DNA of 64,000 bases from Gemmatimonadota bacterium (GCA_022826005.1 JAJDVT010000015.1:62001-126000); one strand, 5' to 3'. Positions 28,921-33,417 are shown, counted from the first letter of the stretch. The notes: a model not told the origin generated them from the sequence alone. Numbers and translations: made by a program.

Positions 28921-29589
28921 GTGAGCCAGATGACTACAGTAGTGCTGGCCGGTCGGCAGACGATGTTGCTTGCAGGCATCAAGCGCATTCTGGAGGAGAC
29001 GGGGCGGTTCAGGGTGCGTGGTCGTGCGCCTGCGTGCGAGAAGGCGCTGCCGCTGGCTCGCAGGGTGAGTCCGGATATCGTCGTTCTGGAGATCGGGCAA
29101 GGCGGGAAGAGGTTGTCTTCCGTCATCAGGGACCTCAACAGCCTGTCGCCGGCCCCGGGGGTCCTTGTGCTGGCTGCCGAGGAGAGGCCGGAGCTGTTGG
29201 ACCGGATCCTCCATGCCGGGGGCATGGGCTGCATCACCACCTCCCGGTCCCCGGAAAGGATGGTTGCAGCCGTTGACATCCTCGCTGCAGGCCGGATGTA
29301 CGTGCCTCGGTGGGGTACGGAAACCGTTCGGGGACGCCTCGGTGGGCGCGGGCCGGGCAACCACCGCGACGCGCTGAACGGGCTCAGCGCGAGCGAGCGC
29401 AGGATTCTTCCGCTGGTGGCGCTGGGCCTGACATCACGGGAGATCGGAACTCGTGTGTTCCTCGCCCCGAAGACCGTCGAGAACTACCGGTCGAGCATCA
29501 GACGCAAGCTCGGGCTTCGAACGCGCGCGGAAATCGTCGCCTTCGCATTGGAGACCGGGGTCGTTTCCCGGGACGGCAAAGAGCTGTAG
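28921..29589 (+). CDS. LuxR/NarL-type regulator with degenerate receiver
   Basis: A transcription factor of about 222 residues. The C-terminal GerE/LuxR helix-turn-helix is clear (LSASERRILPLVALGLTSRE, then KTVENYRSSIRRKLGLRTRA). The N-terminal domain has the receiver fold order but lacks phosphorylation chemistry. The usual acidic pair is replaced by AGRQTM, and the phospho-acceptor Asp position reads Glu (PDIVVLEIG). It may respond to a ligand or partner instead. The start is GTG 28921 or ATG 28930. The open frame extends upstream to 28747 but that part looks non-coding. It sits at the left edge of the less GC-rich island. Confidence 0.85.
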   Translation: MSQMTTVVLAGRQTMLLAGIKRILEETGRFRVRGRAPACEKALPLARRVSPDIVVLEIGQGGKRLSSVIRDLNSLSPAPGVLVLAAEERPELLDRILHAGGMGCITTSRSPERMVAAVDILAAGRMYVPRWGTETVRGRLGGRGPGNHRDALNGLSASERRILPLVALGLTSREIGTRVFLAPKTVENYRSSIRRKLGLRTRAEIVAFALETGVVSRDGKEL

Positions 29590-29592
29590 CAG

Positions 29593-29609
29593 GCCGGAAA
29601 GACTCCGGC
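29593..29609 (+). terminator. hairpin after the LuxR-type gene
   Basis: GCCGGA-AAGAC-TCCGGC forms a perfect 6-bp stem with a 5-nt loop, starting four bases after the regulator's stop codon. No T-tract follows, so it may be a weak terminator or a transcript 3'-end stabiliser. Confidence 0.4.
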
Positions 29610-29650
29610 GCACGTGGGAATTCGGGTAGGAACTTCATGGGGTTTTCGCA

Positions 29651-29784
29651 CATCGGCGTCAGATGTTGTCCACGAGGATTGAGGGGTCTTGTCCGCTCTC
29701 GGTTGATCACGGTGCGCGGCATCTTGGGGCACGGGACCCGTCATGGGGGCGGGTCCCGCCCTACTGATCACCTGGAGGTCGACA
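29651..29784 (+). promoter_or_regulatory. conserved 5' leader of small secreted gene 1
   Basis: This 134-nt stretch upstream of the ATG aligns with the 135 nt upstream of the paralogue at 32965. Shared blocks include CATCGGCGTCAGATGTTGTCC (17 of 21 identical), the CGCTCTC run and GGCATCTT-GGGGCAC-GGGACCCG. It contains a perfect 8-bp hairpin, GGGACCCG at 29733-29740 with CGGGTCCC at 29750-29757, placed 27 nt before the start codon. CTGGAGG serves as ribosome-binding site. The region is probably a transcribed regulatory leader. Confidence 0.6.
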
Positions 29785-30219
29785 ATGAGAACCAGACAGT
29801 CTTCCGCTCCCAACGCGGTGTTCGGGATTGTCGCCGTCACGGGGAGCCTGGCGCTCCTGACCGGGACGGCAATTGAGATTTCAGCCGATGACTCAACCAC
29901 CAACGAGCGAGCCGTCAAGGAGCATGTGACTGATCCTGCCGCGCTCGCTGTCTTTCCCTGTGTGTCCGCGGAGGCGCGCGCGGGTCTTCAACAGGAGCCG
30001 CCCGACGGGGAGCCGCAGTGCGTGGACGACGAAGGCAACGAGAAGCCTTGCGGACCTGAGGACTACTACGAGATGTGCGTACAGGAAGCAACTGAGGAAC
30101 TACGCTCTTGCCGGGAGGGCGCCGGCTTTTGGAAACGATTGCGTTGCCGGCTGGACTACGGACGGGCTGTCGCTTCATGCGCGGCGGAGTTCCTCGAGGA
30201 CACCCTGTTTCCCGGATAA
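29785..30219 (+). CDS. small secreted seven-cysteine protein 1
   Basis: A 144-residue protein I do not recognise. It has an N-terminal secretion leader (AVFGIVAVTGSLALLTGTA, residues 11-29), then a variable acidic stretch. The Cys-rich region has Cys at 59, 79, 89, 98, 109, 121 and 132. The gene at 32965 has the same seven Cys with nearly identical spacing. The last four Cys form a C-x10-C, x11, C-x10-C pattern in sequence predicted helical, compatible with a disulfide-linked helical hairpin. The start ATG is supported by GGAGG. The propeller lipoprotein and an ABC transporter follow on the same strand. A toxin, bacteriocin-like or signalling role is a guess. Confidence 0.8.
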   Translation: MRTRQSSAPNAVFGIVAVTGSLALLTGTAIEISADDSTTNERAVKEHVTDPAALAVFPCVSAEARAGLQQEPPDGEPQCVDDEGNEKPCGPEDYYEMCVQEATEELRSCREGAGFWKRLRCRLDYGRAVASCAAEFLEDTLFPG

Positions 30220-30245
30220 AGCCCTGTTGGACCAGGAGAGATTTC

Positions 30246-31364
30246 GTGAGAGACAAGTTGAGAAGGGTTGCCATACGGTTCGAAGAGATCATCCGTGCGG
30301 GTACACCGCTCCTTGTTGCCGTGGCTGTCCCGGGATGTCTCGCCGAGACGGACACGGACGGCCCCGGTTCCCCGCCGGAAGCAGACTCTGCAGACCAGAC
30401 ATTGGAACTGGCGGGTGCCCCGTCAGGAGCACCGCTGTTTCCCGAGGTGTTTTCGGTCACTGATGCCGCGATGCATCAGGGATTGTGGTTCGTTCTGGAC
30501 GGACGCGGGAACCAGGTTCATCGCATTGACCCGGATGGCGCGACGCTGCACAGCTTCGGCCGGGAGGGTAGCGGTCCTGGTGAGTTTCGGCGTCCCAGCG
30601 CCATCGTGGCCCACGGCGACTCGATCATCGTGGTGGATCACGGCATCGTGCACGTATTCAGCCCGGAGGGGAGGCACATTGCGGACCGCGGCTTCAGGCC
30701 CGGCCCGGGTCTCGACTGCGTGGCAGCGACGGTGGGAGTCAGCGACGCTGTGTCCACGCCGGCCGGGTTGCTGATGCTGGGCGAGTGCCTGAGGCCCGAC
30801 GGGGGCACCACTGTCCACGCCGCGGTCGAGACGGTGGACGGAACAATCCGTTCTCTCGCGCGCCGGTACGCGCAAGCAGGAAGGATCGACCTGGATGGCA
30901 TGGCAGCTGTAGTCGCACGTCATCCCCAGGGGTTCCTCTTCGGTTCGGGGTGGGAGCGTTGCCTGGATCTGATCAGCCTTTCCGGCGAAGGGCTGGATAC
31001 GATCTGCCACGATTGGCTGGAGCGTCTGGACATTCCGCCGGAAGCATTCCGTGAACTGGAGGGCGCAATCGCCGAGGCTCGGAGGCTGGGGATCCGCGTA
31101 GAGCTTCCGGAATCCATGCCGGCGCTCGTCGGAGTGACTGCGATGCCCGGGGGGCGGCTCGTCTACCGGGTGTTCGCACCCGGCGACCCGGATATGGAGA
31201 CCCTGCAGTTGGTGACCAGGGGGGAGGCGGGCCGGGCAGTGCCGCTGCCCCTGCCCAGCGCTCCGCTTCTCTTCCTGGATGGGGAATCGAGCCTCGCGGC
31301 CTGGAACGAGATGGAGGGCACCCGGATCGACATTCGTACTGTGGACAGCCTGGATGCCAACTGA
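30246..31364 (+). CDS. six-bladed beta-propeller lipoprotein
   Basis: A 372-residue predicted lipoprotein. The signal segment LLVAVAVPGC supplies a lipobox-like VPGC. The mature part shows propeller repeats such as LWFVLDGRGNQVHRIDPDG, LHSFGREGSGPGEFRRPSAI and IIVVDHGIVHVFSPEG, typical of NHL-like six-bladed propellers. The GTG at 30246 follows CAGGAGAG and lies 26 nt behind the first small secreted gene. Its 3' end overlaps the ABC ATPase by 11 nt. Ligand binding or immunity to the small proteins is possible but not shown. Confidence 0.82.
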   Translation: MRDKLRRVAIRFEEIIRAGTPLLVAVAVPGCLAETDTDGPGSPPEADSADQTLELAGAPSGAPLFPEVFSVTDAAMHQGLWFVLDGRGNQVHRIDPDGATLHSFGREGSGPGEFRRPSAIVAHGDSIIVVDHGIVHVFSPEGRHIADRGFRPGPGLDCVAATVGVSDAVSTPAGLLMLGECLRPDGGTTVHAAVETVDGTIRSLARRYAQAGRIDLDGMAAVVARHPQGFLFGSGWERCLDLISLSGEGLDTICHDWLERLDIPPEAFRELEGAIAEARRLGIRVELPESMPALVGVTAMPGGRLVYRVFAPGDPDMETLQLVTRGEAGRAVPLPLPSAPLLFLDGESSLAAWNEMEGTRIDIRTVDSLDAN

Positions 31365-32076
31365 CACGGCCGTGGAGGTCCGGGCGTCGGATCTGGCCGT
31401 TTCGTACAAGGGTACATTCAGGCGCGTCCACGCGCTCCGCGGCCTGACGCTGGAGGCCAGGCCAGGCGAGATTACGGCACTGGTCGGACCGAACGGGGCA
31501 GGCAAGACAACGTTTTTCGCGGTTCTGCTGGGATTGCTTCGCCCCGACCGGGGACGTTGCATAGTGGGTGGAATGCGTCCCGACGAGTACCGTCGGCGCT
31601 ACGGGATGGGCTACCTGCCGCAAGTCAGCGCCTTTCCCAGAGGATGGACGGCCCGGGACGTTCTGGCCCGGGCCGTCGATCTGTCGGCACCGCCGGACCG
31701 GGCCGCTGCCCTGGACACCGCCGTGGAACGCGCGGACATCGACTCCGCTACGCTCTCCCGTCCTGCGAGGAGGTGCTCCGGCGGTGTGAAACGGAGGCTC
31801 GGCCTCGCGTGGGCGCTAGCTGGTGACCCGTCGCTGATCTTGTTGGACGAGCCCTTCACGGGGCTTGATCCGCGTGCTCGCGCCGGTTTGCGGCGTGAGA
31901 TGATTTCGGCTCGCCAGAGGGATGCGACCGTCCTGTTTGCCAGTCATGAGCTGGCGGAAGTCGAACAGCTCGCCGATCGCGTGTTCATTATGGAGAATGG
32001 TCTGACTCGGCCGTTTGCAGGCGCGGCGAATGCGACCGCGCTCAACAGAGAGCTGCTTGGAGGTGCGCCACCATGA
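31354..32076 (+). CDS. ABC transporter ATP-binding protein (ABC-2 type)
   Basis: A 240-residue ATPase. Walker A is LVGPNGAGKTTFFAVLLGLL, the Q-loop is GYLPQVSAFPRGW, the signature is the slightly divergent CSGGVKRRLGLAWALA, Walker B is LILLDEPFTGLDP, and the switch His is in FASHELAEVE. This type works with ABC-2 exporters or immunity pumps such as those for peptides. It starts inside the end of the propeller gene and its last bases overlap the permease ATG, so the three are coupled. Confidence 0.92.
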   Translation: MPTDTAVEVRASDLAVSYKGTFRRVHALRGLTLEARPGEITALVGPNGAGKTTFFAVLLGLLRPDRGRCIVGGMRPDEYRRRYGMGYLPQVSAFPRGWTARDVLARAVDLSAPPDRAAALDTAVERADIDSATLSRPARRCSGGVKRRLGLAWALAGDPSLILLDEPFTGLDPRARAGLRREMISARQRDATVLFASHELAEVEQLADRVFIMENGLTRPFAGAANATALNRELLGGAPP

Positions 32077-32813
32077 AATCACGCCTGCTCCCGTGGCCGC
32101 GCCGAGCCGTTCTGCATCTGCGGGAGAGCGGGGGCGCCCTGGCCGTTGTGGTTGCGACCGCTCTGCTCTTCCTTTTGCTCGATGCCGCATCGGGAGGCCT
32201 GTCCGGAGAGGGTGCGGCGCTCGTGGTTGGCCTGGGGATACCTCTGGCTCTCGCCTCCAGAGGCCCAGGCGTACGGGCGGGCATCGCGACGCTGTGGGTG
32301 CAGAAGCCGGTGGACCCCGTTCGTTACTACCTCGCGGGAGCTGCATGGGACGTGGTGGTGGCGGTCGGAGCAACTTTGTTCCTGTTGTCCATTCTGGGCA
32401 TTGTGGCCCTCCGGGTTGGGTTGGACCCGCTGGCGAACCCGATCTGGACGATCGGTGCTCTCGCGGCGGTCACGCTCGTCGTGGCGTCAATGGCAAGTGG
32501 CGCTTCGATGTGGTTCCCGCGCGCGGGCCGGCTCCTGATCCTCGCGGTGCTGATCTTCACACTCTACCTGCGAGCAAGCACGGCCCTGAACCCGTCGCTG
32601 GGAGACCAGCCGTGGATTCGATGGGTTAGCCCGGTACTGCCGCCGTGGGAGTCCTTCGTGTCGCTGCTTGACCCGGAAGCACTGGATGCGTCGGCAGCGG
32701 CCCGGGCGCTTATGTGGATCCTCCTGTACGCGGCGGCCTGGGTCGGCGTTGGCGTCCTCGGCCTTCGCCGACTTCTTGCCAACGGCGCTCTGTGCCGGAT
32801 GCGTTCTCCCTGA
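32073..32813 (+). CDS. ABC-2 type permease subunit
   Basis: A 246-residue integral membrane protein with six hydrophobic segments, including GALAVVVATALLFLLLDAA, VVVAVGATLFLLSILGIVAL, IGALAAVTLVVASMA and MWILLYAAAWVGVGVLGL. Its ATGA overlap with the ATPase gene shows they form one transporter. No specific family beyond ABC-2-like could be assigned. Its context between the two small secreted genes suggests it exports, or protects against, their products. Confidence 0.8.
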   Translation: MKSRLLPWPRRAVLHLRESGGALAVVVATALLFLLLDAASGGLSGEGAALVVGLGIPLALASRGPGVRAGIATLWVQKPVDPVRYYLAGAAWDVVVAVGATLFLLSILGIVALRVGLDPLANPIWTIGALAAVTLVVASMASGASMWFPRAGRLLILAVLIFTLYLRASTALNPSLGDQPWIRWVSPVLPPWESFVSLLDPEALDASAAARALMWILLYAAAWVGVGVLGLRRLLANGALCRMRSP

Positions 32814-32829
32814 CCGGGGGATTGTCACC

Positions 32830-32964
32830 CATCAGCGCCAGGTGTTGCCCCCTGTGATCGGGGGTTTTTCGCGCTCTCCTCCGGCGTCGCCCATCGGTAT
32901 CGTTTGGCACATGGACCCGCCACCAGGGCGAGTCCGAATGCGAAGACACCATTTGGAGGACACA
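32830..32964 (+). promoter_or_regulatory. conserved 5' leader of small secreted gene 2
   Basis: Homologous to the leader before 29785 and of nearly the same length (135 versus 134 nt). The hairpin is kept with different bases: GGACCCGCC at 32913-32921 pairs with GGGCGAGTCC at 32926-32935, with one C-A mismatch. It ends 29 nt before the ATG. A ribosome-binding site, TGGAGGA, follows. Conservation of pairing despite base changes supports a function for the hairpin at the RNA level. Confidence 0.6.
32848..32869 (+). terminator. intrinsic terminator or attenuator ahead of small gene 2
   Basis: CCCCC at 32848-32852 pairs with GGGGG at 32860-32864 around a 7-nt loop and is followed by TTTTT at 32865-32869. 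It sits 35 nt after the permease stop. It is also inside the leader region shared with small gene 1, whose copy lacks this strong stem and T-run. It may simply end the ABC transcript or may attenuate transcription into the second small gene. Confidence 0.65.
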
Positions 32965-33417
32965 ATGAGAGACAGGTCATCACACGCAATGCATTCCTTG
33001 TTCGGGATCGTCGCTGTCAACGGCATCCTGTTGCTCCTGCCCGGCACCGCGTATGGCGCGTCCGCACCTTCGCCGCCGAGCGACGGCGCAGCCTTCATGC
33101 CGGACATGGTTGCGGCCATTGCCGCGAACCTGGATTGCGCTCTGGTCGAGACCGCAGCCATCGCACAGCAGCCGCCGGAGGAGCAGGGGGGTTCCGGGTG
33201 TACGAACCAGGACGGCACCCCGCGTGAGTGCACGGCTTCCGAAAAAGTTGGACAGTGCGCAGAAAACGCGAGAGACGCTTATGAACAGTGCAAGAAGGAA
33301 GCCAGGGACTTCGCGGGCAGGCTTGCCTGTCGGGTGGGTCTTGGAATCGACGCTCTTGCATGCATTGCGGAGGGAGCGTTGGAAACCATCCTGCCGTTCA
33401 AGAAGGTGTTCGGGTAG
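32965..33417 (+). CDS. small secreted seven-cysteine protein 2
   Basis: A 150-residue paralogue of the protein encoded at 29785. The leader is SLFGIVAVNGILLLLPGTAYG, sharing FGIVAV and PGTA/TGTA with its partner. Cys are at 58, 79, 89, 98, 109, 122 and 133, giving spacings of 20, 9, 8, 10, 12 and 10, against 19, 9, 8, 10, 11 and 10 in protein 1. Outside the leader and the Cys frame the two share little beyond QQPPEE/QQEPPD and the C-terminal helix, which suggests diversifying sequence on a fixed scaffold. The function is unknown. Confidence 0.8.
   Translation: MRDRSSHAMHSLFGIVAVNGILLLLPGTAYGASAPSPPSDGAAFMPDMVAAIAANLDCALVETAAIAQQPPEEQGGSGCTNQDGTPRECTASEKVGQCAENARDAYEQCKKEARDFAGRLACRVGLGIDALACIAEGALETILPFKKVFG

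What the first reader, a model, noticed from the sequence alone, without database searches (positions are those of the whole stretch)
28921..33417. Unrecognised secreted seven-cysteine peptide / propeller lipoprotein / ABC transporter island
Seen: a LuxR-type regulator, small Cys-rich secreted protein 1, a six-bladed-propeller lipoprotein, an ABC-2 ATPase, its permease and small Cys-rich secreted protein 2, all on one strand. The middle genes overlap. The block is less GC-rich than its flanks and separates envelope and LPS housekeeping genes. Known: paired small secreted peptides with a dedicated ABC transporter and a surface lipoprotein are the layout of bacteriocin, toxin-immunity or peptide-signalling systems. 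Inference: this is such a system with an unfamiliar peptide scaffold. No modifying enzymes are seen, so the products may be disulfide-stabilised rather than RiPP-modified.
Basis: partly seen in the sequence, partly recalled or inferred. Interest (0 to 1): 0.85.

Follow-up and report, generated by a model that had tools for sequence, protein, structure and literature searches.

The report
Polymorphic secreted-peptide and propeller–ABC cassette
A conserved but fast-diversifying gene cassette in one group of Gemmatimonadota bacteria encodes small secreted proteins pinned by cysteine bridges, a membrane-anchored six-bladed propeller and an ABC transporter; it looks like a toxin-and-immunity or self-recognition system with a previously undescribed peptide family, but no activity has been shown.

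Summary
Window 28921-33417 encodes a LuxR-type regulator, two paralogous Sec-secreted seven-Cys proteins, an NHL-type six-bladed propeller, and an ABC-2 ATPase and permease, all on one strand. It is the most GC-poor stretch of its length in the window.

A profile of the Cys proteins alone finds 39 loci in 38 genomes, all in one class of Gemmatimonadota. In 29 of 30 loci of the window's own family the propeller is adjacent or inferred across contig ends; most also carry the ABC pair. The reverse search agrees: the 17 closest permeases all belong to these cassettes. Neither Cys protein matches Pfam, NCBIfam, PHROGs or PADLOC. The shared core is a twin CX10C helical hairpin, often preceded by a third Cys pair.

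Two findings favour a diversifying recognition or toxin-immunity role. A close relative has an empty site between the same neighbours. In another genus, divergent alleles sit at one fixed locus: flanks 90-98% identical with dS 0.1-0.2, propeller about 50% with dS about 2, Cys proteins 33-59%.

Against a universal toxin role: loci without the ABC pair keep a conserved Cys protein. I favour a bacteriocin-like secreted peptide with propeller/ABC self-protection (0.42). No activity has been tested.

The parts
28921..29589 (+). LuxR/NarL-type regulator with degenerate receiver domain (Glu in place of phospho-Asp)
   Evidence: GerE E=1e-12, Response_reg below cutoff; VVLE in all four orthologues
29658..29671 (+). 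conserved promoter box upstream of Cys protein A (GTCAGATGTTGTCC), candidate regulator site
   Evidence: shared by 7 Cys-gene promoters in the four genomes that carry the LuxR gene
29734..29756 (+). 5'-leader hairpin GGACCCG...CGGGTCC of Cys gene A
   Evidence: one compensatory pair change among 7 sequences
29785..30219 (+). Cys protein A (144 aa, predicted Sec signal, 7 Cys, twin CX10C core)
30246..31364 (+). six-bladed NHL-type beta-propeller, membrane-anchored or lipoprotein, four conserved Cys
   Evidence: AlphaFold pTM 0.71; VIA-align Z 19.1 to 1q7f; conserved Cys
31354..32076 (+). ABC-2-type ATPase
   Evidence: ABC_tran E=1e-23
32073..32813 (+). ABC-2-type permease
   Evidence: weak ABC2_membrane_3 match E=0.0025; own family profile
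32837..32850 (+). conserved promoter box upstream of Cys protein B (GCCAGGTGTTGCCC)
   Evidence: only site in the genome with 1 mismatch or fewer to CGCCAGGTGTTGTCCCC
32913..32935 (+). 5'-leader hairpin of Cys gene B
32965..33417 (+). Cys protein B (150 aa, predicted Sec signal, 7 Cys, twin CX10C helical hairpin)

Best explanation
The cassette is a bacteriocin-like or kin-discrimination system. Shown by sequence: the Cys proteins carry Sec-type signal peptides, have an invariant Cys core, and sit beside a propeller and usually an ABC-2 pair. Inferred: they leave the cytoplasm by Sec, fold in the periplasm as a helical hairpin closed by disulfides, and act on the envelope of neighbouring cells. 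The periplasm-facing propeller binds the matching peptide and gives specificity. The ABC pair uses ATP to clear or expel it, as in lantibiotic LanI plus LanFEG. In the window's lineage a LuxR-type regulator probably drives both peptide genes through a shared promoter box. Cassette alleles are exchanged at a fixed chromosomal site.
For: Co-occurrence from both directions. Sec-type signal and no double-glycine leader or modifying enzymes among the neighbours examined. Cys proteins are the fastest-diverging genes of the region with the core Cys invariant: 25-61% identity against 79-91% for flanks. Divergent alleles at one locus in genus g12: flank dS 0.13-0.21, propeller dS about 2.0-2.2, and 4-Cys peptides with dN/dS 0.72-1.14 in comparisons of close alleles. 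Empty site BCAT-148 bp-KdtA in G022. One to three Cys paralogues per locus. Propeller-ABC units without a detectable Cys gene in 5 of 8 second-clade loci, as orphan immunity would predict. Dedicated regulator box.
Against: No antimicrobial activity is known or computable. At least eight loci keep Cys gene plus propeller with no ABC pair, and there the Cys protein evolves slowly (dN/dS 0.05 and 0.17 within genus g29). Six loci of family f7 have Cys gene plus ABC but no recognisable propeller. Cassettes stay at conserved sites without mobile-element marks. Compared genomes are different species, and NG86 dS is saturated at these values. A receptor-ligand system would diversify in the same way.
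Confidence: 0.42

Rival explanations
1. Peptide signalling (pherotype-like): the Cys proteins are secreted signals, the propeller is the receptor, the ABC pair imports or clears them, and the LuxR-type regulator reads the outcome.
For: LuxR-type regulator and dedicated promoter box in the window lineage; paired divergence of peptide and propeller, as known for pherotype systems; six-bladed propellers in general bind secreted Cys-rich ligands, and LRP6-Dkk1 is among the structural matches.
Against: The regulator is next to the cassette in only four close genomes plus one related fragment; no sensor kinase is adjacent; ABC-2 transporters are normally exporters.
Confidence: 0.2
2. Envelope factor: the Cys protein is a periplasmic client or subunit, and propeller plus ABC assemble, metallate or stabilise it, in the manner of NosDFY with its periplasmic partners.
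For: Long-term retention at syntenic sites in many genera; strong purifying selection in ABC-less loci; Cys-rich chains and four conserved Cys in the propeller.
Against: Presence/absence even within one genus, an empty site, allele-like divergence with near-neutral dN/dS for some Cys proteins, and tandem paralogues fit a fixed housekeeping role poorly.
Confidence: 0.25
3. Host-directed secreted factor: MAGs of the group look like sponge-associated bacteria, and the peptide might act on host cells, with propeller and ABC as accessories.
For: Record titles of the matching MAGs fit sponge-associated metagenomes, by recollection of the isolate naming; disulfide-pinned helical hairpins are common among animal- and plant-active peptides (general knowledge).
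Against: A membrane-anchored propeller plus ABC kept beside the gene suggests a target in the producer's own envelope; relatives in other families are not shown to be host-associated.
Confidence: 0.08

Closest known systems
Lactococcin 972-like bacteriocin loci (PF09683)
   Same: unmodified bacteriocin thought to be secreted by Sec, followed by two genes for presumed immunity/transport proteins or a putative ABC transporter (PMC11796350, PMC4055356)
   Different: beta-sandwich peptide, Gram-positive hosts, no propeller; our proteins do not match the family
LanI + LanFEG lantibiotic immunity
   Same: membrane-anchored protein plus ABC-2 transporter protecting the producer (general knowledge; nisI/nisFEG are cited in PMC4055356)
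   Different: lantibiotics are modified RiPPs; LanI is not a propeller; the ATPase is far below the cutoff of the lantibiotic-protection model TIGR03740 (102 against 310 bits)
CHCH / twin CX9C proteins of mitochondria
   Same: helical hairpin with two Cys pairs; weak, non-significant matches to Pet191, NDUFA8 and CHCHD5
   Different: spacing is CX10C, bacterial and Sec-exported; similarity is probably convergent
NVEALA family of Bacteroidales (PF14055)
   Same: small exported Cys-containing proteins, by recollection near six-bladed propellers (not tested here)
   Different: no match of our proteins or of this genome to PF14055
DUF5128 (PF17170) six-bladed propellers
   Same: the window propeller resembles this group weakly (E=0.0032, below cutoff)
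   Different: a distinct subfamily with four conserved Cys, tied to the cassette; 115 propeller matches exist in the genome

Membership tests
Lactococcin 972 family | peptide matches PF09683 | tested here: not met
   no Pfam match for either Cys protein at E<=10 other than Pet191_N at 0.049
Lactococcin 972 family | Sec signal peptide on the peptide and two adjacent membrane/ABC genes | tested here: met
   signal-type N termini read by eye, no dedicated predictor; ATPase and permease adjacent. This is an analogy of layout only
Lactococcin 972 family | growth inhibition and lipid II binding | not testable with these tools
   needs bench work
RiPP / lantibiotic with LanFEG | modifying enzyme (LanB/C, LanM, rSAM) in the cluster | tested here: not met
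   none among the ten flanking genes scanned with Pfam nor among the cassette genes
RiPP / lantibiotic with LanFEG | ATPase reaches the curated lantibiotic-protection cutoff (TIGR03740) | tested here: not met
   102.5 bits against a cutoff of 309.75
NVEALA | match to PF14055 | tested here: not met
CHCH / twin CX9C | two CX9C pairs in an antiparallel helical hairpin | tested here: not met
   the pairs are CX10C; a hairpin is predicted (core pLDDT about 78), but disulfide distances could not be read
NHL-type six-bladed propeller (fold) | six-bladed beta-propeller fold | tested here: met
   pTM 0.71; the top structural matches are NHL propellers, Z 17-19
ABC-2 (type V) transporter | ABC ATPase plus a multi-spanning ABC-2 permease | tested here: inconclusive
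   ABC_tran E=1e-23 is clear for the ATPase; the permease matches ABC2_membrane_3 only weakly, below cutoff
Known anti-phage defence systems | match to a PADLOC system | tested here: not met
   only generic ATPase and HTH matches

The most novel reading that the evidence does not exclude
A new class of allelically exchanged self/non-self recognition locus: disulfide-pinned twin-CX10C helical-hairpin proteins recognised by a cognate six-bladed propeller coupled to an ABC exporter, confined to Gemmatimonadota as far as searched, with domesticated ABC-less descendants.
Probability: 0.35. Interest if true: 0.8.

Novelty: new variant of a known kind. Interest (0 to 1): 0.6.

Why it matters
If right, it adds a peptide family and an immunity/recognition architecture (propeller plus ABC) from a phylum with few cultured members and no such system found in the papers searched. 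The paired hypervariability of peptide and propeller at a fixed locus gives a direct test: whether the propeller determines which peptide allele a cell tolerates or hears. It would also give a role to one of the more than one hundred propeller genes in this genome.

Tried and rejected
Chance ORFs: rejected by dN/dS and conservation. Known families: none in Pfam, NCBIfam, PHROGs or PADLOC. Mobile element: no tRNA and no flanking direct repeats. Genome-wide regulon: only the two promoter sites stand out, and weaker sites are no more frequent than in the reversed control. Specific fold for the Cys core: no structural match above what simple helical hairpins give. ABC as the peptide's exporter: disfavoured by Sec signals and ABC-less loci. 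Propeller homology of the lipoprotein in the f7 locus L104: not supported. The literature searches gave no description of this system.

Full report
1. Observation. The block is the GC minimum of the window for its length (65.1% against 70.0%), with lower GC3 than the neighbours listed. The two Cys proteins are paralogues (34% identity), and the similarity extends into their promoters.

2. The Cys protein family. Homologues in relatives gave a profile whose core is C-x(8-10)-C-T-x-[ST]-E-x5-C-x10-C-x(10-13)-C-x(9-10)-C, with the core Cys invariant in the aligned set. Shorter paralogues and the relatives in families f2 and f7 keep only the last four Cys, a twin CX10C pair. An N-terminal Sec-type signal is present throughout by inspection. 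AlphaFold with 16 sequences gives a helical hairpin (residues 91-112 and 116-149, pLDDT about 78) carrying these four Cys; the first 76 residues are unreliable. Structural searches give only generic hairpins. Weak hits to mitochondrial CHCH proteins probably reflect the shared geometry.

3. Distribution. The profile matched 33 of 295 relatives and 31 of 395 genomes of a phylum sample, 38 genomes in all, in three families of one class. A pattern scan of 84,980 species genomes returned seven confirmed loci, all on contigs that also occur in the f1 genomes of the phylum search, although three carry the label Gammaproteobacteria. That scan used one narrow pattern, so divergent relatives elsewhere are not excluded.

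4. Neighbourhood. Of 30 loci in the window's family, 29 have the propeller next to the Cys gene (some cut by, or inferred across, contig ends) and about 18 have the ATPase, one of them decayed. All three f2 loci have the propeller and two reach an ATPase. All six f7 loci have ATPase and permease and no recognisable propeller. The gene families were clustered from these loci, but the Cys profile that found them knew nothing of the neighbours. In the reverse direction, the 17 best permease relatives (E<=8e-78) all belong to genomes with the cassette at that place, two across contig ends. A second clade of eight propeller-ATPase-permease units includes three with a very divergent twin-CX10C protein just upstream (L190, L197; L196 frameshifted) and five in which none was found. 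The genome holds 115 propeller matches, but the next best after this one scores E=8e-11 against 2.5e-250, so adjacency of this subfamily is not expected by chance.

5. Dispensability. The ABC pair is missing in at least eight Cys-plus-propeller loci (L038, L042, L049, L050, L052, L097, L100, L102) and broken in G005. With the Sec signals this argues that the ABC pair does not export the peptide.

6. Evolution. Between the window genome and three relatives, flanking proteins are 79-91% identical, the ATPase 72-84%, the propeller 60-66%, CysB 43-61% and CysA 25-42% (the G008 CysA value compares with its only Cys protein, a B type). G022, the next relative, lacks the cassette: its class-IV aminotransferase gene is followed 148 bp later by KdtA. 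In genus g12 the cassette lies at one fixed site. Flanks of G033 and G083 are 90-98% identical (dS 0.14-0.21) while the propeller is 50% (dS 2.2) and the Cys proteins 33-46%; ATPase and permease are intermediate (86 and 81%). G033 against G171 shows the same with a more divergent ABC pair. Synonymous divergence about ten times that of the flanks points to exchange of old alleles rather than rapid substitution alone. Where alleles are close (G033 against G175, G171 or G066), 4-Cys proteins have dN/dS 0.59-1.14. A second set in genus g1 shows the same trend more weakly. In ABC-less loci of genus g29 the Cys protein is strongly conserved (dN/dS 0.05 and 0.17), so the family may have more than one role.

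7. Regulation. Seven Cys-gene promoters in the four genomes with the LuxR gene share a box (GCCAGGTGTTGTCC), a TATCGT-like -10 region and a leader hairpin GGACC...GGTCC. The box was not found upstream of Cys genes in loci without the LuxR gene. These genomes are close relatives, so this is suggestive only. The regulator has Glu at the phospho-acceptor position in all four.

8. Propeller. AlphaFold (pTM 0.71, 7 sequences) and VIA-align (Z 19.1, 3.6 A over 248 residues to the Brat NHL domain) support a six-bladed NHL-type propeller. Four Cys are conserved in the seven sequences aligned. Most relatives have an uncleaved N-terminal membrane segment, the window copy a lipobox-like VPGC.

9. Interpretation. 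Layout and evolution resemble bacteriocin-immunity or pherotype loci more than a housekeeping complex. The closest layout analogue is lactococcin 972, thought to be Sec-secreted and followed by presumed immunity/transport genes whose function is itself unproven (PMC11796350, PMC4055356). Membership in that family is not met. Activity, disulfide pairing, peptide-propeller binding and ABC function are all inferred.

10. Limits. The Cys search outside the phylum was shallow; gene calls in relatives are from a home-made caller; signal peptides were judged by eye; contigs are often broken; NG86 dS is saturated for the most divergent genes; comparisons are between species.

Noticed in passing
G000, whole genome: 115 matches to the window propeller (E<=0.001), most in open frames of 380-600 aa: a very large expansion of six-bladed propellers.
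   Followed up: no
L114, L116, L117 (VXNP01000104.1, JAPPJO010000117.1, VYDD01000135.1): Contigs labelled Gammaproteobacteria in the public records belong to genomes placed in the window's own Gemmatimonadota family: probably mislabelled MAGs.
   Followed up: partly
L196:9385-9865: In the single-contig genome G021 the divergent Cys gene of a second propeller-ABC unit is split by a frameshift.
   Followed up: partly
L104:8786-9937: In the f7 locus of G392 a 383-aa putative lipoprotein (P0007) takes the place of the propeller between Cys gene and ATPase, with no detectable similarity to it.
   Followed up: partly
window:26597-27868: A CesT_Tir_1-fold protein (PF22550) directly upstream of PspA, conserved in position in the relatives.
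   Followed up: no
L189:4064-4552: A LuxR-like fragment with the same degenerate receiver style next to an ATPase-permease-propeller unit without a detected Cys gene in G022.
   Followed up: no
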